A DNA stretch of 64,000 nucleotides. Source: Nereocystis luetkeana. Its lineage: Eukaryota; Sar; Phaeophyceae; Laminariales; Laminariaceae. The translations under genes and the position numbers were made by a program. The stretch covers positions 7,022,270-7,086,269 of the forward strand of contig JARUPZ010000016.1 in NCBI GenBank assembly GCA_031213475.1, read 5' to 3'. The notes under the pieces were generated by a model, which was given only the letters and a program-made list of their open reading frames with translations, made no database searches and was not told the DNA's origin. Shown here piece by piece: positions 11,753 through 59,400 of this stretch (positions are counted from its first letter, which is position 1; each line of letters begins with the position of its first letter).

Positions 11753-13075
11753 CATGCTTAATATTTTCGAACACGTTCCAATGATCGATATTAAGGCCGT
11801 TACAGATGATATTCGTACGACGTATTCGACTCTTACGGACCTTATAGACTGAAACATACCATGCCACCAGGCAATATTTAGCCACATGTAACTCCCACCA
11901 CACCGTATCATCATACCATACCACCAAAATACCAAATAAGATACCGTGTTTTTTCCATATACCATACCACTAGCATACCATATCACATACCGTGTTTTCC
12001 CATATAGTATATCAAACCGTACCATCATACCATACCAACATACGATATCACATACCGTGCCACACCGCACAATCGTACCGTGCCACACTATACCCATACT
12101 GTACCGACACCCCAGGGCGGCAGAGCAGGAACGAGTCTTAGTAAGTGCACAAGAGCATTCGTTGAAGGTGCAAGGTGGTGAGGTGATAAGTGAGGTGAGA
12201 GTGCAAGGTGATGAGGTGATATATGAGGAGGTGAAGGTGCGAAGGGAGAGCGATGGCACCAGGGAGCAGCAGCAGCAGCCGCAACGGCAACATCAGCCAC
12301 GTCTGCAACAGCACCTGCTGCAGGACCAAGTGGGTCCGTTAAGTTCTTGCGACGATCGTCCCGGAGAACAACAGCGACAGCAGCAGCGGAGTCAGGAGGG
12401 CTCGGTTAGCGCTGGAGGATACAACCCTGGCAACCAACAGCCAGAACAAGACGGGGGGGGGGGGTGAAGGAGGTGGAGGGGGTGGAGGAGGTGGAGAGGG
12501 TGGACGGGGTGGAGGAGAGCGGGGGGCTGGTAGGGGAAGTGGAGCAGCAAGTTGGTGTTGGGACCATCGCGGGCATGGACGCTGGAGGGCGCTGGAAGTG
12601 GGGTGGCGAAGGCTTCTCTGCTTTTGCACCAGATTGAAACAGGTTTCGTTGGCCTGCCCCCGATGCTCGTGATGCGAACCGCTGTTCATTGCTTGTTGTA
12701 CTCTGTTGGATGTATGATGATTTGCGTTGACTGCCTGCATATGAACGAGTGCGCAGTACTTTAAAGCAGTATAAGTCCTGGTGAGTATAGAAGAGTAAGT
12801 GCATACCAGTACCAGGTACCAGGTATGAAGTTCGTTTTGTGTGCATGTACGAGTTGGATAGAGCAGACAATATTATACTGCTGACCCAGATGTGAATTGT
12901 GGAACCTTGAGCTGTACGCCGTGGGCGGGGTCTTTTGAGAATTGCAATGGTCATACCACACACGCATGGCATGGCATCATGTGCTGCACTACCAGCAGCA
13001 TACACTGGTTGGGTGCCGTATACGTATTACACTATTCATAGACTACCAGGGGGTTAGTAGTGAGATTAGCATGAC
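11746..13075 (+). repeat. 1.3-kb dispersed repeat, complete copy
   Basis: This region is related in inverted orientation to 43886-44900 plus 40216-40440. Shared blocks are the segment after the microsatellite (CATGCTTAATATTTTC, GATATTAAGGCCGTTACAG), an ACCATACC-rich patch (11850-12110), a GGTGGA-rich patch (12450-12530), CTGGAGGGCGCTGGAA and the 3' part with CAGATGTGAATTGTGGAACC. About 240 bp at 12187-12430 is absent from the inverted copy. I see no coding motifs. The repeat carries TACCAGGTA twice (12810-12825). Confidence 0.75.
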
Positions 13076-13337
13076 AATACGCGGAATATACGATATTGGC
13101 ACAGGCTACTCTTGCAATGTAGGCACGACCGGAACGCCGGACCGAGCTGGGATTTAGGCTCCGTTTCTTGTCGGTATGACGCAAAGTGATGCACGCGTCG
13201 GGAGCATGTACGAATAAAAATACGAAGTACAGTGGTAGTTGTAAGTCAACCTCTGACTCCAGGGAAACACAGCCTTTAGACTTACGCGTGCAGACGAAGA
13301 TATCAAAGCAACGCACGCAGATACGGTCATCCAACGA

Positions 13338-13880
13338 GGGAGGGGGGGTGTACTCGATAGGAGATATGTACTCGATCTCATGCATGGCCGTAGTCGTATG
13401 ACCATAGACCCTCGTATCCCTACAATGCCGGGACGGAGAATGCCGGGTTTTCACCGACCAGGCAGGCATTGCTTGCACCAAGCGCGAAGCGCCGTGAGGT
13501 GTCCGGCGAGTCGCATGAAGGGTGAGCAGCATCCTACAAAGAACCGCTTGTGAGGCGGACTTGCATATTGATGACAGCTTCAATGAGTGAATTTGATTTC
13601 CGGTGTAACCATCTCCAGAGACAGCAATGGGAGTACTATGTACCTGCCTCTTGGGTGCCTTGCCATACATACTACCAGGTACGTGATATGATCAATCCCC
13701 TTGTCTGGAGTAAAGGATCTTTACCTCGCACAAATGATCTAACTCGACCAGCTGTGGGCGACCGCCAAATTAAAAAATAAAAACACTACCATGGTTGTCT
13801 AGCTCACGTAGTGAGCGGCGTGTTTTACAGTGTCGTTGCCAACCGATGCTAACCCTACCTATACAGAATCGGGGGGGGGG
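13338..13880 (+). mobile_element. Poly-G-flanked dispersed repeat, copy A
   Basis: The first of eight related segments (A-H). It begins in a G-run followed by TGTACTCGATAGGAG. Next come CATGCATGGCCGTAGTCGTA, CCTACAATGCCGGGACGG, GTTTTCACCGACCAGGCAGG and CGCGAAGCGCCGTGAGGTG. It ends CGTTGCCAACCGATGC...CTATACAGAATC and another G-run (13871-13880). No terminal inverted repeat, no coding capacity. Compared with copies B-D it has a clean extra CCAGGTA at 13675-13681. Confidence 0.85.
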
Positions 13881-15289: not shown

Positions 15290-15990
15290 AGTCAGAGCTC
15301 TCGAAGAGTATGTTGTTGCATTATCTCCCTTACCGAAGCTGTAGAGTTCCGCACGTTTTTCCTGTACGGGGCGGATAGATATTCAATTCCTTGGTCAACT
15401 GACTGATCACTGGAGTTTTTTATCCTTACATTGATTGGTAGCGTATCCCGTCCGTCTTCCCTACAGTGCAGTGATGGCCTGGGTTGTGCAAGATTACGAT
15501 ATATCGCAGTCAGTATCAATCAAGTAAGGGTACATTGTAACCAAGTCGAATTCGTATTTTCGATTGGGTCGTTGAAGAATGGCTAATTCGGCTACGTCGT
15601 CTCCACCACTTCAGGATGTATGGTAGGAGAAACCGCCACCTGGACGAGAACGGGAGATTAACAAACACAAGTGGATGGTGTCTCTTTAAAAACAATATGT
15701 CTAGTTACAGTGTACCTGGTAAGCTCCCAGCATCGTTAACATGGTACGTTGTTTGTTTTGCGGCCGGCAGGAGCGTTGATGGTTTGTTGCGGAAGGATGA
15801 ACAAATGCACTGTTTCATACTACCAGGTATTAATATTACAAACACGATGATTTCCTTCGTCGTTTAACTGGCTGGAATGCACAGTAGTTCACGTCTGACG
15901 ATTCTAGTATTATTGCGGACAGGCAGTAGCCTAAGCGTTGTCATGAGTATCATGGAAGTATCAGCGTACGCACATATGTCGGGTATTAAA
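15290..15990 (+). repeat. Dispersed repeat, related to 19630-21085
   Basis: Blocks ATTCAATTCCTTGGTCAACT, TTGATTGGTAGCGTATCCCG, TTGTGCAAGATT and AGGGTACATTGTAA recur in the same order and strand at 19640-20040. The next part (TTTGTTTTGCGGCCGGCAGG, TTGTTGCGGAAGGATGAAC) matches 20760-20870. The later copy is longer, with extra sequence between the two parts. No gene recognised. Confidence 0.8.
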
Positions 15991-16020
15991 ACGGGACTTT
16001 TCGTTTTTTGTTTTTTTTAA

Positions 16021-21605: not shown

Positions 21606-21686
21606 TTCTGTTTGTCGTTTTTTAGAACAATACTACACATTGTCGGATGGCAAGCATACTAATATTATTAATAATAATCATCATAT

Positions 21687-21797: not shown

Positions 21798-22936
21798 TTA
21801 GTACGTCTCCTCTCTGCTTCAAAGTGAAGAACTCTCCAAAACAAAAGCGCGGCAGTATCATACGACAATTTAAAGCTAATGTGACGCTCATGAAGACTAT
21901 TAATACTACAAGCAACATCCCTCCATCTCATCCACCAAAAAACGCCCACTCCCACCCCCTAAGAAGCATATTATTATTATTGTAGGTGATACATACCACG
22001 TGGTATCTGGCATCACATTCAAAAATGACTTTCGACGAAATCCTCGATCTCACAAATAAATGTTTTGTTTTCTAGTTTAAAAAATGCACCTGGTATGTAT
22101 GTATGCCGCCGTCGCGTACGGGGTCAAAGGCGCAGCTCAATCAACGCACGATTACCATTGGTTCTGCATAGATTTCGTTCATTATGCCCATATATATGGT
22201 GTGGTACGTATAGGTAATCTGGAATCGAGGCGCCCCCTCGTTACAATCTCACCTCTCCCTTTTCGTTTTTAGAGATACCAGAGGGTGCGTGCGGACTGTG
22301 CGGACGACCCGAGGAGCAAGGAAAAAAGTAAACTCGTTGTTGGTGCTCCGCTGCTCCAGCCGCGCTTCCTGGGATATACTGGTACATAGAGGCACGTGCT
22401 ACGTATTACCACAGGTATGTATTCTGTATGTACCAGGTATGTATGATACGTACGCGTAACCTATACTACCCGATACATTGGCTCGAAGATTCGTTCGCGA
22501 TTTTTTGTTGTCGTTCTACAAAAGTTTGAAAGACACACTCATCCATGTCTAAAATATGACATCATACTCGTACCAGTATGTACGTACTCACTCATATATA
22601 CCATGGTACTTCGCAGCAGCCGTGGGATCCTAATTTTCGTCGAACGCCACACACAGCAGTCGCGAGCTGCGTGTGATGCATCGGCCGAGCGAGCTGTGTG
22701 TGATGCTTCGATCGAGCGTGCTTCGGAGTGCATGACGGTGAAGGATAGAAGATGAGTGGGTCGGTAACCCCCTCGGTTTTCTCTTGTTGTCTGTGGCAAG
22801 AGAAAAACGGCTTGACAATGTGCTGTATGGTATTATACCTCTCTGCAGGATATAGCAAAGTAGTATACTACTGCTGTACCTGTAGGAGTAGGTACCTGGC
22901 ATAGGATGCAGACTAGTTTGAACTGAAACTCTCAGT

Positions 22937-24165
22937 GTGTGTGCGTTCTTCACATTAAACCGTTCTTTCTACCCGTCGACATCCAGCACAACCAGCGTCC
23001 GTGCCGATTCTTCAATTCTAGAAGATATACAAGTTCTGTGGTCACAAAGCTACGCCACAGAGATACTACGTTGCCACGTACCCGGTATGCAGTAAGCACA
23101 GCTGTGGGCAATGCAATGACATGTATGTCCTCATGCTAGATACGACAGGCACGACATACACAACCTATGAAATAGAGAAACGAAAGGAAACAGTCAAAGA
23201 CAAAACACAAACAAAAAAGACAAATCGAAAGAGAAGAAAAAAAAATGAAAGAAAAACTATTACGGGGGACCATAGTTAAGTAGGACCAAATATTGATGGT
23301 AAAAATGGGTAAATATACAGGTTTTTGCCGATACCATAGGTCCTATTAACTATGGCCCCCCGTAATAATAGAAGAAACAATCTGTCGTGCCCCCCCCCCG
23401 CAGGCGAGGTGGCCAACACTTGAAAAACAACGAGCTAGAAAAAAAAAAAAAAAAAAAAAAAAACTCCACTGCTTGTAAGCAGAGTAAGACAAAGAACCAA
23501 GGAAAAATAACAAAGGGAAAATAACAGGCAGACCAAAGCCCAAAGCACCCTCCAGGTTAGGTGGTGGCAGCAGTTTGTGTTACGAGTAGTATAGCCAGGT
23601 TCCCCCTGCTAACCCGCCTGGTACCTTGCTACCCAGACTGCCGTCTCCGCCCTGCGTATTCGTCAACTATGCCCAGCCCCTTGGCGTCAGACAATACGAA
23701 ACGAGCAGAGCAGGTTCGTCATCCAACCACGCCACACGACTCCTTCAATACGGCTTACCGTATCAATCAAAAAAGGAAGAGGAAGAAATGAAATGAAAAT
23801 CTCGGAGAATCAGCGCAAGAAAAAAAAAGAGACGTCAAGGAAGGGAAGACCACGTTCGAACCAGCTGCACCAGTTGGTGGCACTACTATTAAATAGTAGT
23901 ATTGGCATGTTCTACTTCCTAGTCGGCCTGGCGCCTTGCTACCCTGTCTGCCCTTTCCTTTCTACTTTTGTCGACCGCAATTTACGTTTTCTATACTCCT
24001 CCTGTCCCCCCCCCATCTCCGCATTCCCTAGGTCGGGTCGTCTGTCACTTCTCCTGCCCCCCCCCCCCCCCCCAACCCATTCCCTTGGACACCATCCACG
24101 GCGGATGCGCGGCGCTGCCTACTCATCTCAGCCTCACAGTCTCGTGCCATCTCACCATGATCCGT
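22937..24165 (-). mobile_element. 5'-truncated LINE copy, inverted relative to 35480-36600
   Basis: The reverse complement aligns with the 3' end of the LINE at 32.7-36.6 kb. It starts in the last coding stretch (RWHE...EMSRQRRAS, near 24150), passes the stop and runs through the 3' UTR to CTTCACATT at 22945. Only the 3' portion is present, as expected for incomplete target-primed reverse transcription. A MITE (23261-23364) and a poly-A tract (23440-23462) interrupt it, and a CCCGGTA insertion lies at 23081-23087. Confidence 0.85.
23261..23364 (-). mobile_element. MITE copy 2, inserted in the LINE 3' UTR
   Basis: TACGGGGGACC...GGCCCCCCGTA, 104 bp. The empty site is visible in the LINE relative at about 36275-36285, where AAAACTAGGAGAAAC runs without the element. 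The internal asymmetric core is reversed relative to copies 4-7. Confidence 0.92.
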
Positions 24166-24305: not shown

Positions 24306-24322
24306 ACTATTATTATTGATGT

Positions 24323-24450
24323 TGCGGGGGGTCATAGTTCATAGGACCAAATTTAATATTTATTTGTAGTAAAAATGGTTAAATATATACCAGGTAGGAT
24401 GTATGTATACCACAGGTAGGTCCTATTAATAGTAACTATGGCCCCACGTA
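24323..24450 (-). mobile_element. MITE copy 3, with small insertions
   Basis: Same family and orientation as copy 2 but 128 bp. Extra bases include CCAGGTA at a TA (24395 region), CAGG near the other end, and ATAGTA inside CTATTAACTATGG. The left TA has become TG. Confidence 0.85.
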
Positions 24451-24652: not shown

Positions 24653-24727
24653 TTATACTATTAAATACCTGGCAGGTACTACTTACTACCAGGTACCGGT
24701 ACCTGGTAGGGGTTTTGTTTTATTTAT

Positions 24728-38129: not shown

Positions 38130-38490
38130 GAAAACTCAATCCTCCTTCACAAAACTACATCACAAACTCAACCAGAAAATCTAATCCTCCTTCAGAAAAC
38201 TATACCAGGTATCACAAATTCCACCAGAAAATCTATCCTCCTTCAGAAAACTACCTGGTATATCACAAATTCCACCAGAAAATATAATCCTCCTTCAGAA
38301 AACTACCTGGTATATCACAAATTCCACCAGAAAATCTAATCCTCCTTCAGAAAACTATATCACAAAATTCCACCCAAAAAACTATCACAAAATCCAGCGG
38401 GAAATCCAGTCCTCCCTCAGAAAACAATACTGTATCACATATTCCACCAGGAAAATACCACAAAATCCACCACAAAATCCAGTCCTCCTT
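38130..38490. repeat. Minisatellite, about 45-70 bp units, six to seven copies
   Basis: Units share TCCTCCTTCAGAAAACTA and CACAAATTCCACCAGAAAAT. Units 2, 3 and 4 carry an extra 7 bp (CCAGGTA or CCTGGTA at a TA), which units 1 and 5 lack. Later units are longer and more diverged. Confidence 0.9.
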
Positions 38491-39389
38491 TATTGTGTCT
38501 GTCATCGCTACATTGTCATACATATCCTGCCTCGGTGGTCGAAAGCGTGACACATTTCGGCGTCCTCGAGTACCAGCACACGCAGGCACCTGCGCATGTA
38601 TGTGATAACTCCACCTGAGACGGACCTCCTGTCCATGGCTTACCTGGCATAGTTTGCATCAGCAAACAAACGCTGCCAGCTACAAAACCACCGCCTCTCT
38701 GAGAAGTAAAAATACCGAAATCACGGGTACAAGACACGTACTCGAGAAAAAATAACATCTATCTGCCACAACTGTGTGTACCTCTGGTATCATTCAATCA
38801 AGCTCGACGCACTATTGCATGCATGCCCTGAAAAACATATTGTTTGATACCTGGTACCCTGGTAGGTGATATCAGCTGGATTGAAAGCACCCCGTGCCTA
38901 GCTTGTACCAATATCGTTGTTGTTGTTGTTGTTGCTGTTGTTCTCACATTAACTCACATTGTACAATTCAATGCAGTCCGTGGTCGCAGGACAGGCTCCA
39001 ATAACTCTGGAGTGGAAGAAATACCTCAAGTAAAAACAGAGGCAAAAACAAAAAACAAACATACGCACTCCACCACAGTGCACTGCGGACACCAGGGAAG
39101 CAAAAAGGAGACTATTAATAGCAGACAAAAACCTAAAAAAGAAGATGAAGCTAAGCAAAACAAAACAAAACAAAACAAAAACAGACGCAGAGATAGTAAA
39201 ACGCAAAAAAAAGGCAAAACGGACCATACTAACAAAGACACAAAGAGGTACAAACGGGAATGAAAGAAAAATGAAAAAAAAGAAGGGACAAAAAAGCGAT
39301 AATCACGGGCGGGGGGGAAAGAAAATACGAAAGGCAGGCACTGGAGCATACAGACACGCACAGTTGCCCAGATGGCACCATGCTAGTTA
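38491..39389. other. Spacer; no gene seen
   Basis: Contains TTG/GTT-rich (38911-38940) and A-rich, AAAAC-rich (39120-39300) patches and TACCTGGTACCCTGGTA at 38850. The frames there are composition artefacts. Confidence 0.4.
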
Positions 39390-43885: not shown

Positions 43886-44900
43886 TACATACATGCAAGT
43901 AAACCACACAAAACCAACTTCATACCTGGTACTTGGTACCTGGTACCTGGTATGCACTCACTCTTCTATAACCCCCAGAACCTATACTGCTTCAAAGTAC
44001 TGCTGTACTCGTTCATATGCAAGCATTCAACGCAAGTCATGATACGTACAATAGAGTACAATGAACAGTGAACGGCGATACGCATCACGAGCATCGGGGG
44101 CAGGCCAAAGAACCCTGTTTTAAGCCGGTGCAAAAGGAGAGAAGCCTTCCCCACCCCAGTTCTAGCGCCCTCCAGCGTCCGTGTCCATGATCGTCCCACC
44201 ACAACCTTGCTGCTCCACTTCCCCTACCAGCCCACCACTCTCCTTCACCCCGTCCACCCTCTCCACATCCTCCACCTCCCCCACCCTCTCCACCCCCTCC
44301 ACCTCGTCCCCCCCGTCCCCCCCGTCTTGTACTGGCTGTTGGTTGCCAAGGTTGCTCAAATATCACCGTCACCTTGCACCTTCAACGTATGTACTTGTGG
44401 TGCTGATACAGCAGTATGGTATCTATACTCGCATGTTCTTGTGTACTTGTGGTGTTGGTACATAGTAGTATGGTGTCTATACTCGCTCCTGCTCTGTCAC
44501 CCTGGGGTGGTGGTACAGTATGAGCATGGTGTGGTACGGTACGGTTGTGCGGTGTGGCACGGTATGTGATATTGTATGTTGGTATGGTATGATGGTACGC
44601 TTTGATACACTATACGGGAAAACACGGTATGTGATATGGTATGTTGGTGATATAGTCTATGGAAAAAACACGGTATGTGATATGGTATGTTGGTGGTACG
44701 GTGTGATGGTACGGCGGTGTGGTTGATATATTATATGGCTGAATTGCCTGGTGGTATGGTATGTTTCAGTATATAAGGTCCGTAAGAGTCGGTGTACATG
44801 GTACGAATATCATCTGTAACGACCTTATATATCGATCATTGGAATGTACTAGTGTAAGTTTGAAAATATAAGGCATGCGGACAGACGGACAGACACATTG
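43886..44900 (-). repeat. Proximal part of the inverted 1.3-kb repeat
   Basis: The reverse complement aligns with 11745-12853: remnant CAGA microsatellite at 44880-44896, GATATTCGTAC-type block, GGTATG-rich patch (44520-44760), GGAGGTGG-type patch (44220-44320), CTGGAGGGCGCTAGAAC. It carries TACCTGGTA three times in tandem (43923-43952), where the relative at 12810 has two. Confidence 0.8.
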
Positions 44901-45611
44901 TAATTACCAAAACAGCTTGGTATATGTGTTCAATGCTACCTGTTTTTCGTTTTGTGGTCACGTGCAGCAATTGTATGGGTTTTGAGTATTCCGTATTCAT
45001 CGTAGAGCAGTACCTGGGCAGGGCGTTGTGGGTGGGTGGGTCTGTTGGTGGCTTTTTCCGATGATTCGTACGTGGGTGTGTAGGTAGGTGGGTAGGTCGA
45101 TTCGTACGTGGGTGAATGTTTTCTTCGTGCACGTCGCTACGTAGTACCCCTGTTCATAATAATTATAATGCAAACCGTGTCTTCAGACGAACAATGTACA
45201 AATATATACCTGGTAGCTAGATGCGTGGATAGATACACAAGTATTCAGTTATATATTGATTTGGGCTTTTTCTTGCGTCGCCGTCCTTATTGTCGTAACA
45301 CGACAACTCCGCAGTCCGAAGGGAACTCTCCTACCGAAATCGCGGCCGCGCAACAACTGTACGACACTTCTTTCCATAACCGCACCGTGTAGCTGTCACG
45401 AGCAATGTTGCCTTCCCCACCGTACCGAACCCTCCTCCAATCAAGAGCCGATACATACGTAGTATGTCATCCCCACACTGAACCCTTGCCCAGGACTACC
45501 TGGAAATACGCTGTTGTTCGCCGCGTTCAAACCTTACTCTTACGTCACCCGCTTGTCGGTCACTTAACAGCTGCCAAGACAATATGTTAGTTTGTTACAC
45601 AAACACAATTT
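44901..45611. other. Spacer; GTGGGTGG/TAGG patch; no gene seen
   Basis: Short degenerate repeats GGGTGGGT and GTAGGTGGGTAGG (45025-45115). Frames are unrecognised. TACCTGGTA at 45208. Confidence 0.4.
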
Positions 45612-45791: not shown

Positions 45792-48209
45792 CTTGTTGTA
45801 CGATTGTGGTCATTCGTATTCCAGGGTTACTGTTGTAAAATTTCGTCGTCGCCTCAACTCTTGCTGGTACCACATATATAGTTATAGTGAGGGGTCAATA
45901 AGACCTTGCCGCGTGAGATCACACTCATACGTGATATCCCTCTGCCCTTCTCTCAATACCGCAGTTTACTAATGTATTGCTTGGCTTCGCGCGGGTTGAC
46001 ATGTCGTCCTTACTACAACAGCAGACCCAAATGTCTACCTTGACCTCATTTTTTCAAGTGAATCTGGTTTCGATTGCTCCGTGGGAACGCTGCATACGAC
46101 CGTGCAAACTGCTCGGACTGCGACAGGACGCCTGCCGCTTTGAACACCGTTTCGGGAGAACGCTTCACCCCCCACCTGTCTGCGTGCGACGGTTACGGAC
46201 TTCCGCTCCACGTGTTTGATCAGAAGGTCCATGGCCGTACCGTCCAAGTTTTTACTCGCCGCCCTTCCCACGCGGACCGATTGCATCTTATGGTGTCATT
46301 CCTTATCCCCCATGTCAGCCGCCCGCAGGTTCTCCACACCCGTGCAGGTTGCGACGGGCACCAGCTTAGTTGGCTTGCCATGCGAGCTTCCGTAGCGGAC
46401 AACTTCTGCATCTTGCCGGAGCGCCCCGAGTCTGGAACGTTTCTGTATACCTGGTAGTAGACGATTCCGAACCCCTCGTAGTACTATGTATGCGAGGACG
46501 GGAATGGCCCTCGATTGGTATACTGCTTTTTTTGCGTCAAGAGACTCACTCTTTCGCGTTTCTGATAAACTGCAGTGGTCCCTCGAACGGCCGTATGCCG
46601 TACTCCACATATACACGTGGTCGTGCACCCTCGTGCTTGTGGTGCGGGAAAGCCCAACTACCCGTTTCGGGGTGATGGTAGAGCCACCGCACGATCGCGC
46701 GGGGGGGGCGCGGGAATCAAATACTCCCCGACATCGGGGACGGATATGACGGCGTGCGCGTCACGCTCGGCCGTGTGCTGCACGATGTGTCTCCCCATGC
46801 CCCATGACGGGTGGCAAGAAACGGCAGCCAAAGGCCGCTATTTTCCCACTCTGTAACGACTACTCTATATTTTGGCGGGAGGCGTCTACCCCCGCTGACC
46901 CCCCCCCCGCAACGGGACTGCGAATAGAACGGTAGTCTCGCTGCTCGCCCGTCCCCGTGGCGGCGCCCGGCTGGGCGGTCTCAGAAGCTGTCATTAGGTC
47001 GACGGCATTCTCCCCGAAATACACCTGTAGCTGCTGGCACGCCGCCGATCGCAGACGGATGATCCCACCTCGCCCCGGCCTAGTGGTCGCGTCGGCCGGT
47101 TCGCTGTCTGCTGTCGGCGGTCGGCAACCAGCGCAGCGACTACCCACGAAGCCTCCACTACTCGCAGCTCAAGGAGCTTTACCGGTTTTGCGTTGTTGGC
47201 GGGGTTTCACGAGACCACCTTCTCTCGCACGCGTCCACCACGGAGCTGTTATCTACGTCCGTCCACCACAAGCTATTCCCTGTGTAACTCCCGGTAATTT
47301 CGGTACTCCTCCGTGAGCATCTCGAGCAACGCGAATATGTCTGTGCCGCCGATGTGGCCGGATAAGCATTCGCGAAAGAAAAAAGCCCTCCCGCTGACAA
47401 CTCATCCAATGGCATGGACATCACCCCGCCCCATTTTGGTTCGAAGACGCGTCGGATGCGGCGACGGTGGCTTGTGGCTTGTGGCGCCATATGACGCCCG
47501 TTGTACTACGGCTCCGGCTAAGACATGGGTGATAAAACAAACCCGGACTTGATGTCTGTGCACAGGCCCGACCTGCTGACGGGCTGTTTCGCCCGACCCG
47601 TTGCTTTCGAATTCAATAAAAAACATTAAATGGGTTCACAGAGGCTCTGGTTGGGCCGGACTGCGACCGACATACTCACGCGTTTCCCCGAGATTTTCAC
47701 CTACATCATCTGTGTACTTGTACAGTAAGCGTACCGTTCTCTATCGCTGCTGCAAAACTCAAGGCGTGGAGCTCGCTGGGCGAATGCTCGGAAATCCGAA
47801 ACAAAGTGGTGCCCGAATCGCACAGGCTGCTGTCTAAATACTGCTGTCTCCTGCATTTGGTGTCCGACAGGAAGTCGCCGCAGAAACACGAGACTGGTAT
47901 GCCCACATCGTTTCCACCTCCCATCCAAAACTAAAAGTCTGGTGTCGTAGGTGCCTTTACCCTCAATTACATGCAGCAAATCAGAATCATCGTGCGAAAT
48001 CCTTGTGCACATGTATCTGCATCTCCATTCAACTCCCCCACAGCAGCCCGGGCGACGCTAGTCGTTCAAGCGTTGAGCGTCTGCCCGATCTCTTACAAAC
48101 AGAGCATCCAGAAAAGCCGCCAGACCCCATCTACTCTTGCTGCCAGAAGCCGCGCCGTCGCACCCAGACACAGGCACAAACACGCCCAACGAGGGGTATT
48201 CGAAACTAT
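45792..48209. other. Unassigned region with frameshifted minus-strand frames
   Basis: The frames 46035-46286, 46296-46628, 46860-47147, 47179-47490 and 47706-48012 (-) are moderately protein-like and GC-balanced. For example, SPSELHALSFAAAIENGTL lies near 47770. Stops and phase changes break them every 200-300 bases. I recognise no domain. A decayed gene or retroelement is possible. TACCTGGTA at 46447. Confidence 0.3.
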
Positions 48210-48312: not shown

Positions 48313-50037
48313 ATAACGACACGCCACTCTTGTCATTTAATCCCAGCGGGGAAGTGTACCCATGTCATGCATGGCCACCGGCGTATAACCATGGACCGGA
48401 GGGTGGGGGGGTGTACTAAAATAAAAGTACAGGAACCGAGTAAACATAACTTTTGGTCGAAAGTTCCATTTTCTAATCTCGTCCAGAAGTCCCACCAATC
48501 CGGTTCGCTTCTCGTTCTGACGTTGGTATATAGTGTAGGTAATCTTCTCTTCTTTTTTTTTCTCGTGTAGTGACAAGACTGTTTAAGACCCAGCGTGTGC
48601 GGCGATTGCCTGCCCGTACACGAAAATACGAACTCCGGAAAAAAGAGTAATTACCAAAGCGTAGAATGATTGCAAGCAACATAGGGCGTATTGCGGAGAA
48701 AGTCACCCCGCGAACACTATTATACTAGAATATATCTGGCAAAAATAAACAAGGACTGAGGAAATCTACGCCTCGACACCCGGACGCAAGACGCCGCCAC
48801 CTTACCCACATCCTCCTCTTCTCCACCCCTCCCCTCTCCCGCGTGTGGGCACGGATGCGGCCTCAAGCGCTCGCGATCCACCTTCACGATAGAAAACATA
48901 TGAAAAGCCTTTTTTGTTCAGGGACATCAGACTCAGCCGGTAACCACCCCCCCCCCCCCCTCCTGTTCTAGTCGTGGTGTCCCGGCAGGCCTTCGCCATG
49001 GTGCAGTTGTTTTTTTTGTTGTTCTAATATATATTTCCCCTGCTCGACCGCGCTGCGAGAAAAAAACACACCCGCGGAGATTCACACAGAGAGGTACAGA
49101 CAGAACGCGGCGCCGGTTAACGCTCCACCGTTCCGCGCGAACCAGAGGGAAAAACTCAAACTCAGTCGTACTGTCAAACTGAAGTAGAGATACCTCTGGG
49201 CATGATAGAAAGCAAGATTGCCAGCAGCAAAAAGGCGTGAGTGTCCGAACCATTTAGCAACGTGATCAGGCGGACGGACGTCAGCGCAATGCAATTGTCA
49301 GAACGCCCAGAGTGAGCCGACCGCGCACCGCTAACTGCGACGTTTCATGTACCCCCAAGACGAGCAGCTGCTGGTCACCCAAAAAACTCCCTCCACTTCC
49401 GGAAGTGATATGATACGAGTACACATGCGTACATGCCAGGTGCATACAAACACAGAAGAAGCATCCTAACACCGAAGCGTACGAAACGTGAAGGCATCAT
49501 AACTTGCAAACAAGCATGCAGTAGGTACCTTGATTAGGCGTACCACTAAAACATTTGATTGCGACCACGCCACACACCCCGCGACCCCTCTTCGAAGACG
49601 ACCCCTGGAAAGCTGCAGTAACCAAAACTGGAGGTAGGCGTGAATGCACAAAGAACGGTGGTCGCTGAGCGCACGGAAAGGGGGGCGGTATAAAACAGCC
49701 TGACATGATAGGCACACCATGGAACGCGTCCTACGCGTAGGGGTGAGAAAAACGTGGCGAAAGCCATGGCGCGACGGCATTTCACGCCGCTTCAAACTCC
49801 TGCACCCCTCTCTAACAACCTGCTGGCGTTCTTCTACGATTTGCGAGAACAAAAAAAAGGAAGAACAGCCAGCCAGCCACAACTAATCAACATGATTTAC
49901 GTCGCTGGCAAACCGCAATCGCAGACTCGATGTAACACACATTAAGCCCCCCTGAAGCAACAGTCGGGCTGCGCTCGCCTCGTCGGTTTTGCATCGAAAA
50001 GTGAACCCAACTTCCCTCCCCGGCATTCGCTTGAATA
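48313..50037. other. Spacer; no gene supported
   Basis: C11-C14 tract at 48948-48961. Minus-strand frames (48933-49253, 49466-49882) have no recognisable domains. Confidence 0.35.
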
Positions 50038-50570
50038 CCTGGTATATGTATATCATACAGGTTGGGCTGGCGTCGATGGGCAACGACGATATATCAAACA
50101 CCAAACACTGCGTGAACTAGACAACGAGCGTACCATTTTGTTTATTCGGTGGTCACCATGGCTGGCGGTCGAGTTTTGATCATTTGTGTGGGGTAGAGAA
50201 TATTGACTTCGCACAAGAGGAATGGTCGTATTACGTAGTGAGTATATGGTGAGGCACCCACGACGCAGTTAGATATGACACCCGTTGCTGTCTCTGGAAG
50301 TGGCCACACTGGAAAACTAATAGAGTCATTCCACGCTGTCGTCCAATACGCAAGAAAATCCTCCCCACGAGCGGTTCTTCGTAGGATACAGCTCGCACCG
50401 TCCATGCGACTCCCCCAACACCTCACCTCGCTCGCGCTTGGGGCAAGCAATCCATGTCTGTCTAGTCGGTGAAAACCCAACGTGCTCCGTCTCGGCATTG
50501 TATGGATGCGGGGGTCTATGATCATACGACTACGGCCATGCAAACCATGCGTACCCTGCCCCCCCCCCGC
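50038..50570 (-). mobile_element. Poly-G-flanked dispersed repeat, copy C, diverged
   Basis: Inverted: GGTTGGGCTGGCGTCGATGG, GAACTAGACAACGAGCGTAC, GTCGGTGAAAACCC, CTATGATCATACGACTACGG, then a C-run at 50558-50568. The other end has no C-run and instead meets TACCTGGTATATG (50038-50050). It lacks the CCAGGTA insertion of copy A (TATTACGTAGTG, 50228-50239). Confidence 0.85.
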
Positions 50571-53444
50571 GCCCCACTCCTTCCTCACCAACATAAAATA
50601 GTAAATACCTGGTATGTGCTATTTTACAAGTATAAACACATTCACGTCTCACAGACGGTGCAGCAGTAGAAAGCGTGCCAGGGGACCTACAGTAGTACAG
50701 TTACGCCCGGTCTCGATTGCGACGCAGCAGTCGCGCGGCAGCGCTGTGTGCTCGCCGTGGCTGGGCGGGCGCTGGGTGCGTGGGGCCGGGCCGTCGTCCT
50801 GTGACGTGTTAAGATGATATCGAATTTGTGGGTCACCGAAAATGCCAAAAAAAAAAAAAAAGTATACCTTGGGAGTGTGAGGTGCACCCGGCAAAAGCCT
50901 CGAATCGGGCCCTTAACTAAATATGGGGTTGTGAAAAAAAAAACGAAAGAAAAGTAAAACTTCGTGAGTACGACGGTATACGGCGTACGCGACAACAAAA
51001 TATCGAAACGAGTCCTGACACAAATGTCTGAGTTTCTGAAACGCCAAAAAACGGGTGTATATCTTTGGGAGCGTTACGGCGTACGCGCGACAAAAAATCT
51101 CGAAACAGGTCCTTTTATAAAAAAAAGTCGCTGTCAACATCAGAAACTCGCATGCGCTCGTAATAAAACACAAAGCCGACATTGAAGTTGATACGATACA
51201 AATGAAGAAAAGAAACAAAAAAAACAAGGGTTGTGACCGATACGAACGCGTCCCTTTCGAGACAGGGGAGGGGGGGGGGGGTCCCGACTGACAGACAACG
51301 GCAACACCCACCCAATACACAGGAGCCAACGCAAACGAGAACACAAATTTACAAGCAATAATCGAATTGGCTCCACCTTTTGGTACCACTTCGAAGTCAC
51401 CAGTCACAACACGTCACAGTCGACGGAATCGGCGAGCTTCAACCCCGGGCCCGTCTCTACTATGGGGCATACACCTAACGCTGCCGCCGGCTGAGTCCAT
51501 CGTGCCCTCGCCGTGGGACCGAAAACGGTGGGAAATGGCTTCACCTGGTCTGTATAACCGTATCAGCACATGTCTAGCCTTATCTGGCTAGCAATCATAT
51601 ACCTGGTATCGTTTTCTGAACGTATTTTCCCGTCACATGTTCATACGTCGTATAATTTCTACTAGTAACGGAGACCAAGATGGTAAAAACCCGGAGAGGT
51701 CTCATTAATCTCAACCTATGTAATTACCAGGTACGGGTTAAAGCGACGGCGAAATGTTACCGCAGTAATCTAGCCCTAATAATCTCGCCGTAAGGGTAAG
51801 CACCCGGTCCGGAAATGTTTCCCTAGCTCACAATCGGTCAGGTAAACCCATGTGGCTCGGTACACAACCATCGAGGTAAAACCATACGATCAGACGAACA
51901 ACCAAACACCGAAAACATAAGATTGCTGCTCAGAACCATGTCGGCGAGCATCTGACTCGGGGCATGACCATGCAGCCGTTCGTAAGCATGTGATCCGACA
52001 GAAAACCATGTCCTGGTGTCGGCCAAGCGTCTGATCAGAACACATAATAAATCACGAGCGTTTTGCGAGCGGCCAATGAACCAACTTAAATTATAAGCAT
52101 CTGATCTGGCACCAGACCATATCTGATCTGGCACCAGACCATATCGGTAGTCACCCAATTCGACGCATGAAGACAACGGTACACTGCCGCCTGGCACGCA
52201 ACCACCGAACCCTTACAGTCACGGCGGACTACTCTCATGCGGAATCGAACGCTACAGCAAGGCGTGTCTCTCTCAAGCCGTGATAAAAAATCGTGGCTGT
52301 GCGCATCCTCACCTCCGACGCGGCCTCCACGGCGCCAAACCCGCAATACCCCCGAACCACAAACTTCGCACCTCGGTGCGGCGGTGCAACCCATCCTGTT
52401 TCATCGCCGATTACACCGTCACCACCGAAACAAAAACACACACAGTGAAAACGAAACCGTAACCGCCGTTGATACCGTCACCGCCGATGGAAACGAAACC
52501 ATCCTGGCCGGTGAAACCGACAACGCCAAGATGAAACCGTCACCACCAATGAAACCGTCGCCAAAAGTGAAAACGAAACCGTCACCACCGGCGAAACCGG
52601 CGAGGGCGCGGGAGAACGCTCTCAGCCGCTCCGCCGCTCTAGCTATACTACCCTTAGATGCGCTCTCGGGCACACTGGCTGGACGGCATGCTAATCAAAT
52701 AGAGCACCTCTCACCTTGCGCCGGGGGGGGGGGGGGGGGGGGGCGAGAGGCAGAAAAACCCCACTACCTAAACTGTCGCGAACGCGCCCCGATTTGCTCT
52801 GGGGTTTTTACCACAAAATATGGGTAAGGAATGGGGGCTCTCGTGTTGAAGAAACCACAAACAGGGATACCAAACAAACCCCTACCGTACGCAAGACAGA
52901 CAAGTATACATACAACAAAGCAGACATGCAGGCAAGAGACAGGCTTAATGAACATCCAGGCGGCCAGGTAGCCAGACAGGCCTACAGACCGTTCTTCTAA
53001 TGAAATAAAATTTACGAGGAGTCTCATCTACTGCATCCGAGACGAGGCACGAGCGCGAAAAAAAACTAAAATAAAATAAAAAGTTAATTGCTCGAGAAAA
53101 AACAAACAAAAAAACCCGGTAAAACAATCTACAGGAGGAGGCCAAACACTTTCGGCCATCACTCCGAAAATTTCCACTCAAAAAAAGGACAGTCGGTCGG
53201 TCGGTTCGCCGGCTAAAAAAAAAGGTGCCAGGATGCGACGATGTGTCACTGATGTTGCTGCTGCAGTACCACGTGTGTTGCACTGCCAGCAGCGGGCAGG
53301 CATCACCACCACCACCACCACCACTACCACTACCACCATCACTATCAGCAGCTGAAGAAGGTGCATCACCCGCGAAGTAAAAATTATATATTATCTCAGA
53401 TAGATATCCTGAGACTCGCAGATAGATGACACAGATAATTGTCT
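50571..53444. other. Region downstream of the channel gene; small repeats, no gene supported
   Basis: Seen here: a direct repeat near 50980 and 51075 (ACGGCGTACGCG then TCGAAAC); a 26-bp tandem copy of ATCTGATCTGGCACCAGACC at 52099-52145; a GAAACCGTCACC-type minisatellite (52425-52605); and G21 at 52723-52743. The frame 52237-52827 (+) reads Thr/Lys/Pro-rich because of that minisatellite. The 3' UTR of the minus-strand channel gene should start at 53444. Confidence 0.45.
53290..53345. repeat. (CAC)n tract
   Basis: About ten CAC/ACC triplets, just 3' of the channel gene's stop codon. Confidence 0.9.
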
Positions 53445-56400
53445 TCAGGCACCCTTGGACTCCTCGATGTTGACGGGGACTTTGGGCATGGTGTACCGAA
53501 TGCCAAGGCTCCCGCAGGCGTTCTTGATGGCCCAGGTACACATGCTCTGGACCGCCCACTTCTTCTCCATTTGCTGTCATAGACGCGCGCATTGACAAGC
53601 GGGGGAGGATGGGTGGAGCCGCCGGGGGGTCAAGGAAGTGGAAACCTTTGGCGGGCTGGGCGGAGGCATGTGAGAAGGCAATGTTCACCCCGCAGCGGCC
53701 AGAAGCGGGGGGGGGGGGGGGGGGAGGGGGGGGTACTCATCATCGTGCATGGCCGTAGTCGTATGACCATAGACCCTCGCATCCCTACAATGCCGGGACG
53801 GAACATGTCGGGTTTTCACCGACCAGGCAGACATTGCCTGCACCAAGCGCGAAGCGCCGTGAGGTGCCTGGCGAGTCGCATGAAGGGTGAGCTGCATCCT
53901 ACTAAGAACCGCTTTTGAGGCGGACTTGCATATGGATGACAGCTTCAATGAGTTGATTTAGTGTCCGGTGGAGGCCTTTAAAGAGACAGCAATGGGAGTG
54001 CTATGTAACTGCCTCTTAGGTGCCTTACCATAAACACTACGTTATACGATCATTCCCACTTGTGCGGAATAAAGGTTGTTCACCTCTCGCACAAAACGAT
54101 CTAACTCGACAATCAGCTGTGACCGACCGCCAAAAGAAAAAAGAAAAAAAACGGTACCCTGATTGTCTAGCTCACGCAGTGAGCGGCATGTTTTACAGTG
54201 TCGTTGCCAACCGACGCCAACCCAACCTATATGTATATAGTAGAGGGGGGGGGGGTGGCAAAACCGTGATGAACCATATACTGGTTACCCCTGGTACGCA
54301 CGCCAAGGACTCTCGTTCGCGCTCCCGCGATCCGGCCGCGATGATGTCGTAGCCAGGTTACTGTTGGCATCTCGCGAGCCCATTCTCCTTCCCGAGCTCC
54401 CCCCCCTTTCAGTTCACAAAACGGGTTTTCGTTGTTGCTATTTAACACAGGCATCTTGTAGACGTACTATTAATAGCTGGACGAACCATGTCGTGCTTTG
54501 GTTTTGTTGCCGCGGCCGGGCTGGTTCAATGAAGGTTTTGGGGAGCCTTGTCAGCGATTGGTGCCTTAATCTCTCCATTTTTAGGCATTTCCAAAAACGA
54601 AACCTAAACCAGACTATCGTCCCACGTATCAACACTCGTTTTCAGGTACTTCTATCCGAACTCCGGTCGTGTTTAAGCGCCGACTCGAGGACGCAAAATA
54701 GACTCAGCAATTCCACGTAAACAACACCCAGCTGACGCTAAGTTCCCCCCGGGGCCAACGACCAGTACTAGAAGAGCTCTCGCCAATGGGCTGTCAACCT
54801 CGATAACGCTACCGATGTACCGACACGAACGCCTACCCTGCCGACACATCAAGCGTCGCCAACACTTGTCAACACCAACCGCAGCACCAACACCACGGAA
54901 ACCGCGAGCAACACAAGCAATACCACCCACATACCCTGACATGATGACCTTAACCACAACACCACCAACACCACCACCACCACCATGTACACGAGACGCC
55001 AGCACCGGACACCAACACAACCGCAAAAAAAACAAAAACACCACGGCGACCAATCAAGCATCTTCAAAGTGTCACATGCCACACACCCCTTCCCTCCTGT
55101 CTCCCCTATCCCCCCCCCCTACCTATCCTTCGCTCTCTCCCACCCAGAGGCATGCTACGTACCCTCTTACTTCCTCCCCCTCTCCCTCGCTGGCTCCATC
55201 CCTCCCTCCCTCCCAAAAGCATATTACGTGCTCCCTTCTTTCCTCTCCCTCTCGCTCCCTCCCTCCCTCCCTCCCTCTCTCTCCCTCCCTCCCCCCCTCC
55301 CGGAGGCAGGCTTCGACACGAGCAGCACGAACAAACCGTTCACGGCTCGATCTGGCGCTCCTCCAATCAAACAAATACGCCCCTATCGTTTTCGGAGGTC
55401 GTTGGCGTCATCCGATACGATTCGTCAGATTGCCATATGCCGCTCCGAGCCGAAATACGAGGACATTTTTTAGGCGTCAACAGGTAAGATAAAACGGTCC
55501 AATATATAATCAAGGTCAGAGTGGTACCCGGTATACAATCAAGGCCGTGATACAGGGGAGGTGCGTCGTCCGGATAAAACTAGAAAAAGGCCTCTTAATA
55601 CCTCTCAGCAGCTGTATGAGTGGAGGATTTCGTTAAAAACATATATATATTTGCAAAAGCTGCGTGTGATAAATTGTACGGTTCCACGATCGCGCGCGCT
55701 AAGTATGGGTTTCAAACGACCTCATCTGGAGAGCTCCTCGAGAGAATCACGTCATAAACACACACAGATCCTACGGGGGGGGGGGGGGGGGGGGGGGGGG
55801 ATGAAAAATCTCCGGCTAAGGTCTGAAAAATTACTCTATGCCAAGTTGACAATCCTCCATAGTTGACCATATCTCCAAGGTAGGAGACTAATTCCGAAGA
55901 GTAGCGCCCGGGTTTCAACGGGGTTCCCCGGCTCCCTTACGTAGGGGATTTCGAAAAAAACACAAGAAAGCGGTGATGGTCCAAAAATATCCCCTGTCGT
56001 GGCAGGCATTTACCCTCTTTCCCGGCACCAGAAATACCTTCGACCCGTCCTTGAAGCGCCATGGGCATGCCCGCACGGAGAGAAAAATATATATTCGGCG
56101 CCCCAATGGCGAGGTTGACTTCCTACAATCAGGACGCAGGCACCTTGCCCCGCTCCCCCCCCCTCCCTTCATTTGCATGTCTGCCATGTTGGGCAGTATT
56201 GATACTACCAGTACCTTATCACCCGGGTGATAAGATAGCACCCTATCACCCGGGTGATAATATAACACCCTATCACCCGGGTGATAAGATAACACCTCAT
56301 CACCCAGGTGATAAGATAGCACATTATCGCACCCTATCACCCGATTGATGAGATATCACCCCATCACCTGGATGATGAGATAGCACCTTATCACCGGAGC

Positions 56401-59400
56401 GATAAGATAACATCCTATCACCCGCGTGATAAGATAACACCCTATCACCCGGGTGATAAGAAAGTACCTCGTCACCCGGGTGATAAGATAGCGCATTACC
56501 GCACCTTATCACCCGGTTGATAAGATAGCACCCCATCACCCGGGTGATGAGATAGCACCGTATCACCCGGGTGGTACGATAGTACCTTATCACCCAGGTG
56601 ATAATATGGCACCTTACCACCCGGGTGATAATATAGCATCCTATCACCCGGTTGATAAGACAACACACCCCCTGGGACGACTTCCCGAGCCCGGTGTCTC
56701 CAAAAGCAAGGGGGGCGGACACGGTCAAATCAATGAATCTAGAAAGAAATCGACCAGATATTTCCACGGACGGAGCATCGCTCCGCGTTTGCACCCTCTT
56801 CTTTCCCATTGTCGAGGGAAAATCAGGTAAGATAAATCATTCGAGGGGAGGCGGTGTGTAGTCGTATCACCCGTGTGATACGGTATATGTGCGTCTCCCT
56901 CACCTGCCAGTTCCCTTTCTGCCTGAAGGTCAGCCTGATGCTCAGCTTGTTGGTGTTCTCGATGCTCGCCAGCGCGAAGCCCATCGTCGGGTACAATCCT
57001 GCGTCCAGGGAGCAGCAGCGGACGCGCAATAGAACGCGAGTGCACGCGAGGTTACGAAAAAACAAAAAGCGGCGAAGAAAAAGAAAGCGCAAACGTATAT
57101 ATCGGGCGAATCCAGCTATCATATTGTGAGTCTGGCTGGCGTTCGAGAGTTTCTTTCCCGAATTCATTCAAGCATATGGATGTTGGTATCTAGCTCGAAG
57201 TGTGCTGACAGCAATAAAAAACAGAACAAAACAAAACCTACACAAAAGCAACAGCCACAGACGTGCGTGCTGTGGCATTCGGCGACAACGACGACGGGTA
57301 AATACGGAGCTAACGACTGGTCGGTCGGTCGATCCGCCATATAAGGGCCATCGCGTAAAAAGTGAGAAAATAAACAGCCAAACAGAACATTTGGCGGCGG
57401 CGGGGAGGGGGGGTGTACTCGTTGTCATGCATGGTCGTGGTCGTATGACCAAAGACCCCGGCATCCCTACACTACTCGGACGGGGCACGTCGGGTTTATA
57501 CCGACCAGGTAGACATTGCTTGCACCAAGAGCGCAGCACCGTGGGGTGTTTTGGCGCATCGCTCGAAGGGTGAGCTGCATCCTACAAAAAACCGTTTTTG
57601 AGGCGGACTTGCATACGGATGACAAGCAGGAGGGGGGTGGGCACGTGACCTACCAAGGTACGAGTTTAATAGCTCTACGTACAGCGTCACGTACTTTACA
57701 GGCAAAAAACAACAAGCTACGAAGCGAGAAAACCCGCGCTTGCAAACCTGCTTGCATGCGTGCTTGGGTACTTCGCTGTACGAGCCCGAGCGTACGCAAC
57801 TCAAGCATGCAAACCGAGTATGACGTAAAACGAACGTAAAGACAAGCACACGACTCAAAAGCAAGCGCGCAAAATTAGCACGCAAGGCAGGTACTGTACT
57901 GTACGCACCCTCCGGCCTGTCTTTCTTCTTGCAGAACGCCTGAAGGGACGCGTTCAGGGACTTGAGCTTGTGGGACGGGGTGTTGATCGCCACCTGAGAC
58001 ACAGCGGGGACAGAAATTTTAAAAAAAAAACACAGAAGGGAGGTAGACTATCAATAGGTGCATGGGTTTCCTTTTGTTTCCGAGGTTTTCTTCTTTCGGG
58101 AAAGTTATGAGTGATCAATGTTGAAGATCATGCGGCGCATTGTCGGACGGCAAGGAAAATAATAATAAAAAATAAGCAAGAACCAAAGGGCGAGAGAAGG
58201 CAGGTCGTGACGACAGCTTCGCAGTCTCCACAAGGCACCAAGGGAGCATACGGAAAAAAAAAACAAAAACAAAAACAAAAACATGACACGCGCAAAACAA
58301 AACTCAGGGCAGAGAGACAAAAAGGAAGACAATAACAACTACAACTACAACAACAACACCAATAACACCAACACCATACAGCAACGAAAGCAGCTACACT
58401 CGGCGGCGAACAGTGGCAGCAGCAGCGGCGGCGGTGCTGGCGTTGCATGGCGGAAGACCGACCGGACGACCCCTTTGATGGCAGAAAACCTATCGACCGC
58501 CCTTTCGCTTTTCTGTGCGTACGCATCACAGCAGTGCCTATCGGTGTCGCTCGGGTGTGAACAGAAACCGTTTCATTTTTGATCGAGGGCACTTCGGCGA
58601 GTGCTTCCATACATATCACAGGTATATATATATCACAGGCAAATACCAGGTACACTGAAGTACCATGGCCTTGTTTTACGGGGCAACAAAACATTTTAGG
58701 ATGATACGTAGGTGAACAAAATTGGCCACGAGACTACAGTCTCTGGCGCCAACGGGATCCCCTGCGAGGACACAGCAACTTTTGTGTACGTGAGTTGCCA
58801 GCGGCGTCGGCTTCATCAATACGCGATCACGGGGGACCATAGTTAATAGGACCTATCATATACATAAAAACCTATATATTTAACCATTTTTACTAACAAT
58901 ATTTGGTCCTATTAATTATGGTCCCCCCGTAATATTTTTTTTTTTACCGGCCCCTCCGCCCCATTGCCGGAAGGGTAATATGTTCCAACTATTGTCAGAT
59001 CGATCGTCATCGTGCGGAAGTATACACAGTTGGTGATGAGCCGTGTTGCTCGCGGTGCTCTACATCGCTCTCGCACGAAGGTGTGCTATTCCACACTATC
59101 AATAAATCCTATTAATAGGCGAAACCCTCGAAACATCTCGGTCGACATCCTATCTAGCTATAGTAGACCCGGCACGATTCTACTGTAGTATGACTGGCAG
59201 GAAGTATCGGGTCCGCCGACTACCCAAACACCTGGTATACAAATGGGATGGATGTAAACGAGACGTAATACGCAGCTTGCAAAGCTGAGTATCAACTATT
59301 TGATCAGTCGAACGCACAGCTGACGTACCAGGTATTTCAAACTTTACAAAATCCAACCAGGTCACTATCAATAGTATGATTGGTAGGCGTACGGGGGTCC

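What the first reader, a model, noticed from the sequence alone, without database searches (positions are those of the whole stretch)
12805..59335. TACCAGGTA/TACCTGGTA: a 7-bp insertion at TA, repeated about 28 times
The 9-mer TACCWGGTA appears about 28 times by my count between 12.8 and 59.3 kb and not at all in 1-12.8 kb. Under equal base frequencies about 0.5 would be expected in 64 kb on both strands. Occurrences are unrelated in flank and lie in spacers and in several repeat families. Homologous copies without it differ by exactly CCAGGTA or CCTGGTA at a TA. The form is TA + 5 bp nearly palindromic + TA with a variable central base. That parallels the known Sleeping Beauty excision footprint TAC(A/T)GTA, in which overhangs pair except for the middle base. 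I infer footprints of an undescribed TA-targeting transposon leaving a 5-nt overhang, or a self-propagating micro-insertion. Tandem runs (12810, 24688, 43923) suggest repeated visits to the same TA.
Basis: partly seen in the sequence, partly recalled or inferred. Interest (0 to 1): 0.88.

Follow-up and report, generated by a model that had tools for sequence, protein, structure and literature searches.

The report
Transposon scars litter an algal genome
A brown-alga-like genome carries a very large number of near-identical 7-base insertions that look like the scars left when a jumping gene cuts itself out, although the jumping gene itself has not been found.

Summary
TACCWGGTA occurs 29 times in the window against 0.53 expected, and 182,395 times in the window's 465-Mb genome against 1,744 for the reversed word. 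It is a real insertion: related copies differ by exactly 7 bp (CCNGGTA) at a TA, and two neighbouring TAs of one tandem repeat were each hit. New here: the flanks carry a symmetric target preference within about 8 bp of the TA, which holds in loci not chosen for the motif. Length variants fit imprecise joining of 5'-CCAGG ends. One-mismatch copies are in excess, as expected of decay. Two further TA-to-TA micro-insertion classes with target preferences of their own share the genome. Best reading: excision footprints of a TA-specific cut-and-paste transposon with a 5-nt stagger; PMC7913693 (passages) gives 2-4 bp for Tc1/mariner. Weak point: no donor recognised in 316 kb holding 148 scars, and no DDE_3 transposase match genome-wide (limited sensitivity). 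Donor, species and strain polymorphism remain open.

The parts
11400..11408 (.). TACCTGGTA
12810..12825 (.). two overlapping units, TACCAGGTACCAGGTA, preceded by TACCAG; homologous to 43923-43952 with a different unit number
13673..13681 (.). TACCAGGTA; homologous copies at 27112-26581 and 53733-54231 lack exactly CCAGGTA at TA
15713..15721 (.). TACCTGGTA
15821..15829 (.). TACCAGGTA
22431..22439 (.). TACCAGGTA
23079..23087 (.). TACCCGGTA; homologue 36605-36283 lacks the 7 bp (its site reads TG)
24388..24396 (.). TACCAGGTA inside a relative of a 110-bp MITE-like repeat; related copies lack it but align raggedly
24687..24708 (.). TACCAGGTA and TACCTGGTA, 13 bp apart
28870..28878 (.). TACCAGGTA
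31068..31076 (.). TACCTGGTA
38203..38211 (.). TACCAGGTA in a 52-bp tandem array; insertion at the second TA of ACTATATCAC
38252..38260 (.). TACCTGGTA; insertion at the first TA of ACTATATCAC in the next array unit
38304..38312 (.). TACCTGGTA; the same place in the following array unit (junctions at about 38155 and 38355 lack it)
38848..38856 (.). TACCTGGTA, followed by CCCTGGTA
40698..40706 (.). TACCTGGTA
40838..40846 (.). TACCAGGTA
43923..43952 (.). run of four 7-bp units, TACCTGG-TACTTGG-TACCTGG-TACCTGG-TA
45207..45215 (.). TACCTGGTA
46448..46456 (.). TACCTGGTA
50036..50044 (.). TACCTGGTA
50606..50614 (.). TACCTGGTA
51600..51608 (.). TACCTGGTA
51725..51733 (.). TACCAGGTA
55525..55533 (.). 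TACCCGGTA
58644..58652 (.). TACCAGGTA
59326..59334 (.). TACCAGGTA
59459..59467 (.). TACCGGGTA
1216..1224 (.). CTACAGTAG, third class (TA-CWG-TA)
50687..50695 (.). CTACAGTAG, third class
59180..59188 (.). CTACTGTAG, third class
62705..62713 (.). CTACAGTAG, third class
5096..5101 (.). TTAATA inserted at a TA (second class, TA-TTAA-TA) relative to the related stretch that begins at 4858

Best explanation
The 7-bp units are excision footprints of a TA-specific cut-and-paste (DDE-type) DNA transposon. The element, or its miniature derivatives, inserts at TA within a palindromic target of roughly W-A-N-N-A-T-R-TA-Y-A-T-N-N-T-W and duplicates the TA. On excision the cuts are staggered by 5 nt, so that each flank keeps the terminal five bases of the transposon, most likely 5'-CCAGG. 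The two CCAGG overhangs pair at four of five positions; the central mismatch is repaired to A or T and end joining leaves TA-CCWGG-TA. A new footprint holds two TAs, so the same place can be hit again, giving tandem 7-bp units. Shown: a 7-bp insertion at TA, the symmetric target preference, the length variants, the genome-wide number, an excess of decayed copies. Inferred: the donor element, its CCAGG end, the overhang polarity, the joining step, and that it belongs to or resembles Tc1/mariner.
For: Count and uniqueness of the 1-nt spacer. Exact 7-bp presence/absence at TA, including two different TAs of one tandem repeat; of 20 seven-bp insertions in a catalogue of 516 gap events, 4 are CCNGGTA at TA. 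Symmetric preference in 204 half-sites (102 of 135 sites kept) against TA half-sites of the same DNA: -1 T 5% vs 19% (p 1e-10), -2 T 41 vs 27%, -3 A 40 vs 27%, -6 A 45 vs 26% (p 3e-10), -7 A/T 77 vs 53% (p 1e-10). The same in the 24 stretches not chosen for the motif (101 sites, 79 kept): -1 T 6 vs 19%, -2 T 47 vs 27%, -3 A 38 vs 26%, -6 A 48 vs 25%, -7 A/T 77 vs 52%. Length variants in 276 kb: TACCAGGGTA 9 (0.75 expected), TACCAGTA 30 (12.9), TACCATGGTA 3 sites (6 on both strands against 0.93); forms expected of a CCTGG end: TACCTGGGTA 0 (0.5), TACCTAGGTA 0 (0.25), TACCTGTA 13 (9.0). Genome-wide TACCAGGGTA 11,422 against 409. TA-CWG-TA (as I recall, the Sleeping Beauty form) has a preference of its own (-1 C 44 vs 20%) and one 5-bp insertion. 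One-mismatch copies 154 against 51-107 for 22 of 23 permuted words; 73 of the 154 differ by a transition (summed by hand).
Against: No element with CCWGG ends and inverted repeats was recognised in 316 kb that hold 148 footprints: by hand, fewer than about 4,400 readable donors (95%) to 182,395 scars. The scans did list pairs (for example L021:61-238, L021:230 and L029:4859; two in L039); I set them aside because their ends are complete scars or their likeness is AT-rich or internal, a judgement by eye. No DDE_3 match at E<=0.001 among 30 scored candidates; mariner and pogo models did not complete. No fully filled-in footprint (TACCAGGCCTGGTA 0, chance expectation also about 0). A uniform 5-bp core lies outside the 2-4 bp stated for Tc1/mariner (PMC7913693, passages), though mixed Stowaway scars with 2-4 bp on one side and 1-2 bp on the other are reported (PMC1925063, passages). 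TACCTGGGGTA, which a CCTGG end would give, occurs twice against 0.18, in loci that look like copies of one repeat. Transitions are not in excess at the two innermost arm positions (7 of 35). The fresh 40 kb alone also showed C in 13 of 26 half-sites at -4, not seen in the larger set. The genome-wide count of TACCTGGGTA did not complete.
Confidence: 0.72

Rival explanations
1. A 7-bp insertion that propagates without a larger donor: a TA-specific nuclease or transposase opens the target and a short CCAGG-bearing fragment (a cleaved transposon end, an oligonucleotide or templated repair) is sealed in.
For: No donor recognised in 316 kb against 148 scars; the scar is nearly uniform; target preference and variants fit any staggered TA cleavage.
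Against: No such process is known to me; three classes with three cores and different target preferences look like three transposons; TA-CWG-TA has, as I recall, the form of a known excision scar.
Confidence: 0.13
2. Miniature elements with CCAGG ends are removed by hairpin or palindrome deletion in replication rather than by transposase, leaving the tips.
For: PMC1925063 (passages) discusses palindrome instability as a cause of Stowaway loss; variants of different length exist.
Against: Hairpin deletion should leave scars of scattered length; the 5-nt core has 120 sites against 9 for the +1 form TACCAGGGTA.
Confidence: 0.08
3. A functional palindromic site (regulator or nuclease site) maintained by selection.
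For: Palindrome; widespread, in 18 of 20 sampled stretches.
Against: Present or absent as an exact 7-bp insertion in repeat copies; one-mismatch copies are in excess; an abundance of one per 2.55 kb.
Confidence: 0.03
4. Microsatellite slippage of a CCAGGTA unit or an assembly artefact.
For: Runs at 12810 and 43923; 15,917 tandem pairs.
Against: In the window most sites are single with unrelated flanks; pairs of unlike central base occur (2 of 6 pairs in loci not chosen for the motif); an artefact would not show a target preference out to 7-8 bp.
Confidence: 0.02

Closest known systems
Sleeping Beauty / Tc1-like excision footprint, TAC(A/T)GTA (sequence form from the finding and from recall)
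   Same: TA duplication around the terminal bases of the element; NHEJ gives footprints equal to the overhangs, 3 nt in SB (PMC7827188, passages); a palindromic preference around TA is reported for ZB and SB (PMC7913693, passages).
   Different: Core of 5 nt (CCWGG), not 3; PMC7913693 states 2-4 bp for Tc1/mariner; the donor is unknown; the target preference reaches -7.
Stowaway (mariner-type) MITE footprints in Triticeae
   Same: Scars of short TIR fragments between two TAs; re-insertion at the TA of an older scar is reported (PMC1925063, passages).
   Different: There five distinct scars at one gene, with 1-4 bp TIR fragments and mixed lengths; here about 182,000 nearly uniform scars.
Minos (Tc1 family) footprint
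   Same: More than 3 nt of the end kept with a TA (recalled, no call).
   Different: 4 nt as recalled; sequence unrelated. The second class here, TA-TTAA-TA, has a 4-nt core.
Mariner-Tc1 elements of Ectocarpus
   Same: A brown alga with 17 families and almost 12,000 copies, mostly non-autonomous (PMC12477816, passages and second part of section 5).
   Different: No footprints or terminal sequences are described in the parts that I saw (the term 'excision' has 0 occurrences); no link to CCAGG could be tested.

Membership tests
Tc1/mariner (IS630-Tc1-mariner) superfamily | insertion at TA with TA duplication | tested here: met
   empty copies have one TA, filled ones two; one homologue (of 23079) reads TG
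Tc1/mariner (IS630-Tc1-mariner) superfamily | palindromic target preference around the TA | tested here: met
   the Tc1-like example is in PMC7913693 (passages)
Tc1/mariner (IS630-Tc1-mariner) superfamily | footprint of 2-4 bp (PMC7913693, passages) | tested here: not met
   core is 5 nt, CCWGG; mixed scars of more than 4 bp in all are reported for Stowaway (PMC1925063, passages)
Tc1/mariner (IS630-Tc1-mariner) superfamily | terminal inverted repeats of a donor beginning with the footprint bases | tested here: inconclusive
   none recognised in 276 kb or in 40 kb more; the rest of the genome was not searchable for this
Tc1/mariner (IS630-Tc1-mariner) superfamily | DDE/D transposase gene | tested here: inconclusive
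   DDE_3 (PF13358): 0 matches among 30 scored candidates; its control search rang in 3 of 14 known genomes; PF01498, PF01359 and PF03184 did not complete
piggyBac | TTAA target, precise excision | tested here: not met
   the target is TA and a scar remains
PIF/Harbinger | 3-bp target duplication | tested here: not met
   only TA is duplicated in the clean empty/filled pairs

The most novel reading that the evidence does not exclude
A TA-specific transposition system with a 5-nt stagger, or a micro-insertion process that needs no surviving donor, has written about 182,000 nearly uniform 7-bp insertions into one eukaryotic genome, so that scars outnumber elements by at least tens to one. Together with two further scar classes this makes excision, not insertion, the main visible mark of TA-specific DNA transposons in this lineage.
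Probability: 0.4. Interest if true: 0.85.

Novelty: new variant of a known kind. Interest (0 to 1): 0.72.

Why it matters
If right, the scars are a genome-wide record of transposon excision at about one per 2.55 kb. They would let excision, target choice and repair outcome be read without the element, and each is an exact 7-bp insertion that shifts the frame where it falls in a gene. A uniform 5-nt stagger would widen the range stated for TA-specific elements. The paradox of many scars and few donors is directly testable by aligning strains.

Tried and rejected
Donor search by shared sequence after TACCWGG (119 half-sites in 276 kb, no common terminus apart from repeats noted below), by inverted-repeat pairs and in 40 kb more: no convincing element; the listed pairs were set aside by eye (see the Against line). 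A repeat beginning TACCAGGCGG I judged internal to a repeat that lies next to the reverse transcriptase at 34190-35713, not an element end. TTAACCC..TTTTAG repeats first looked like donors of TATTAATA; their flanks suggest TTAA-type (piggyBac-like) insertion instead. Viral contigs: the motif-pair scan gave 9 loci with motif counts of 2-3, which I take for chance; the others gave no locus. Genome contigs gave 2 contigs of an Oligoflexales MAG that encode the reverse transcriptase, with no motif in 6.4 kb; that MAG as a whole has 24 motifs against 11 reversed in 2.8 Mb, a prokaryotic yardstick. Ten ORFs, hand-picked from the 70 listed, gave no Pfam family. Papers: the two motif words occur in 19 held papers; no title in that listing concerns transposons, and I opened none of them. 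Other searches; only four papers were opened (PMC12477816, PMC7827188, PMC1925063, PMC7913693), as passages and, for the first, also one part of a section. That the scar is unpublished is claimed only for these searches.
Full report
What it is in. The window has no tRNA found by ARAGORN and no Rfam match at gathering score, few long ORFs, a Notch-type LNR protein and a reverse transcriptase. In the listed best 120 of 952 relatives of the reverse transcriptase, those with an organism name are Ectocarpus proteins at 44-57% identity and one, at 77%, from a MAG named Parasphingorhabdus; the other near relatives are unnamed. The window is G000:C16:7022270-7086269 of an assembly of 465,085,209 bases in 1,987 contigs. 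I infer a brown alga; the species was not determined.

The observation. TACCWGGTA occurs 29 times, 0.53 expected. The spacer of one base is specific. Genome-wide there are 182,395 against 1,744 of the reversed word, one per 2.55 kb, and 15,917 tandem pairs against 2. Twenty 10-kb stretches at one fixed offset of contigs C1-C20 gave 77 motifs and no reversed word; 18 of 20 had at least one. Among four-base gapped palindromes (spacers 0-7, at least 8 copies) in these stretches plus the window, TACC-N-GGTA has the highest z score (120 against 5.1).

It is an insertion. Self-comparison of the window and of 276 kb (window plus L012-L035) shows related copies that differ by exactly CCNGGTA at a TA. 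In the array at 38150-38420 one junction without the motif reads ACTATATCAC (about 38355) and another ACTACATCAC (about 38155); one junction has the insertion at the second TA and two have it at the first. A looser catalogue held 539 insertions, 23 of them 7 bp long; the stricter, context-aware one holds 516, of which 20 are 7 bp long, 6 of these TA-type and 4 CCNGGTA. The array cases fell outside the TA-type rule there. A 14-bp double insertion in L013 is absent from a homologue at 88% identity. The window site 23079 has TG, not TA, in its homologue.

It has the mark of an integration enzyme. 204 half-sites, 102 of 135 sites kept after dropping pairs, near-pairs and sites too near an end, against all TA half-sites of the same DNA, show a symmetric preference at -1, -2, -3, -6 and -7, weak at -5 and -8 (p 0.03, 0.004), and nothing clear from -9 on apart from p 0.026 at -20. 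That pool contains the window and four loci fetched for a tandem pair (15 of the 135 sites). In the 24 stretches not chosen for the motif (240 kb, 101 sites, 79 kept) the preference is the same: p 1e-7, 1e-8, 4e-3, 8e-11 and 2e-8 at -1, -2, -3, -6 and -7, 0.04 at -8, and 0.08 or more (rounded) from -9 to -12. The last 40 kb alone gave 13 motifs (12 W, 1 C/G), no reversed word, and of 26 half-sites -7 A/T 23, -6 A 13, -3 A 12, -2 T 12, -1 A/G 22, but also -4 C 13, not seen in the larger set. A control set of other TA-to-TA words (72 half-sites) showed a deviation at -1 (p 0.013) and none further out; TACSGTA and TACGTA deviate weakly at some positions. So -1 alone would not be convincing; -6 and -7 are.

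It looks like joined staggered ends. Enriched length variants in 276 kb are TACCAGGGTA (9 against 0.75), TACCAGGGGTA (3 against 0.28), TACCAGTA (30 against 12.9), and the palindromes TACCATGGTA and TACCGGTA (3 and 13 sites; both-strand counts 6 and 26 against 0.93 and 8.45). They fit an end CCAGG. The forms of an end CCTGG are TACCTGGGTA 0, TACCTAGGTA 0, TACCTGTA 13 against 9.0, and TACCTGGGGTA 2 against 0.18, the last in what looks like one repeat. In the 240 kb of stretches not chosen for the motif: TACCAGGGTA 8, TACCTGGGTA 0; TACCATGGTA 2 sites, TACCTAGGTA 0; TACCAGTA 22, TACCTGTA 14. Genome-wide TACCAGGGTA is 11,422 against 409; some of these lie in a 528-bp tandem repeat visible in the list. 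The central base in 135 sites is T 65, A 55, C 8, G 7. Exact copies number 135 and one-mismatch copies 154, against 51-107 (mean 75, by hand) for 22 of 23 permuted controls; the exception, CTAC at 161, overlaps the third class. By hand, mean divergence is near 7%. Transitions make up 73 of the 154, but only 7 of 35 at the two innermost arm positions. So copies decay; whether fully neutrally was not tested.

Two more classes. TATTAATA (140 half-sites in 276 kb) prefers TAC-TA-GTA; TTAATA is the commonest TA-type 6-bp insertion, 5 of 39 six-bp events. TACWGTA (204 half-sites) prefers C-TA-G; CTACWGTAG has 26 sites and one 5-bp insertion was seen. One TA-flanked stretch with inverted ends beginning CAG, identical over the 43 bases shown, lies at L019:4010-4768 between C-TA and TA-G; its left flank is a TAC microsatellite and its surroundings hold many related inverted repeats, so its bounds are uncertain.

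Mechanism and doubt. A TA-specific cut-and-paste element with 5-nt staggered ends explains the insert, the TA, the W centre, the target preference, the variants and the pairs. Passages say that SB leaves 3-nt overhangs and footprints equal to them (PMC7827188), that Tc1/mariner footprints are 2-4 bp and that Tc1-like elements prefer palindromic AT sites (PMC7913693), and that Stowaway sites can be re-used and leave mixed scars (PMC1925063). The missing donor is the main doubt: none recognised in 316 kb with 148 scars (135 and 13), and no DDE_3 match among 30 candidates. Either the donor is rare, at most some thousands of copies, and very prone to leave, or it has died out, or it is not of a kind that I could recognise. 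A donor-free micro-insertion is not excluded.

Noticed in passing
L020:4568, L023:7098, L026:6282, L029:3925, window 5096: Second micro-insertion class, TTAATA at TA (TA-TTAA-TA), with target preference TAC-TA-GTA; five presence/absence cases. Its donor was not found.
   Followed up: partly
window 1216, 50687, 59180, 62705 and 22 sites in L013-L033: CTACWGTAG, a scar-like class TA-CWG-TA with preference for C-TA-G.
   Followed up: partly
L019:4010-4768: TA-flanked stretch of about 757 bp with long inverted ends beginning CAGACAGCTG; a candidate donor type for TA-CWG-TA scars, bounds uncertain.
   Followed up: partly
L020:377-473, L020:1603-1699, L029:8651-8751: About 100-bp inverted-repeat elements beginning CCCTTTTAG or CCCCTTTAG next to TTAA, probably piggyBac-type MITEs.
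   Followed up: partly
window 21684-21792, 24725-24833, 48207-48315, 58825-58933, 61138-61246: 110-bp MITE-like family with inverted ends beginning TTACGGGGG next to TA.
   Followed up: no
window 32746-35713: LINE-type reverse transcriptase region in two ORFs; related contigs occur in a MAG filed as Oligoflexales (L010, L011), which looks like algal contamination.
   Followed up: partly
window 42250-42864: Eight copies of TACTCCGAGTA, a palindrome between two TAs, in and near a tandem array; perhaps another scar multiplied by tandem duplication.
   Followed up: no
window 56213-56667: Tandem array of nested 27/118/172-bp periods built on the palindrome ATCACCCGGGTGAT.
   Followed up: no
window 37707-37948: 90-bp inverted repeat, 100% complementary, 62-bp spacer.
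   Followed up: no
window 7814-9397: 527-aa ORF with a Notch/LNR domain and cysteine-rich repeats; a related stretch at 30644-30815.
   Followed up: no
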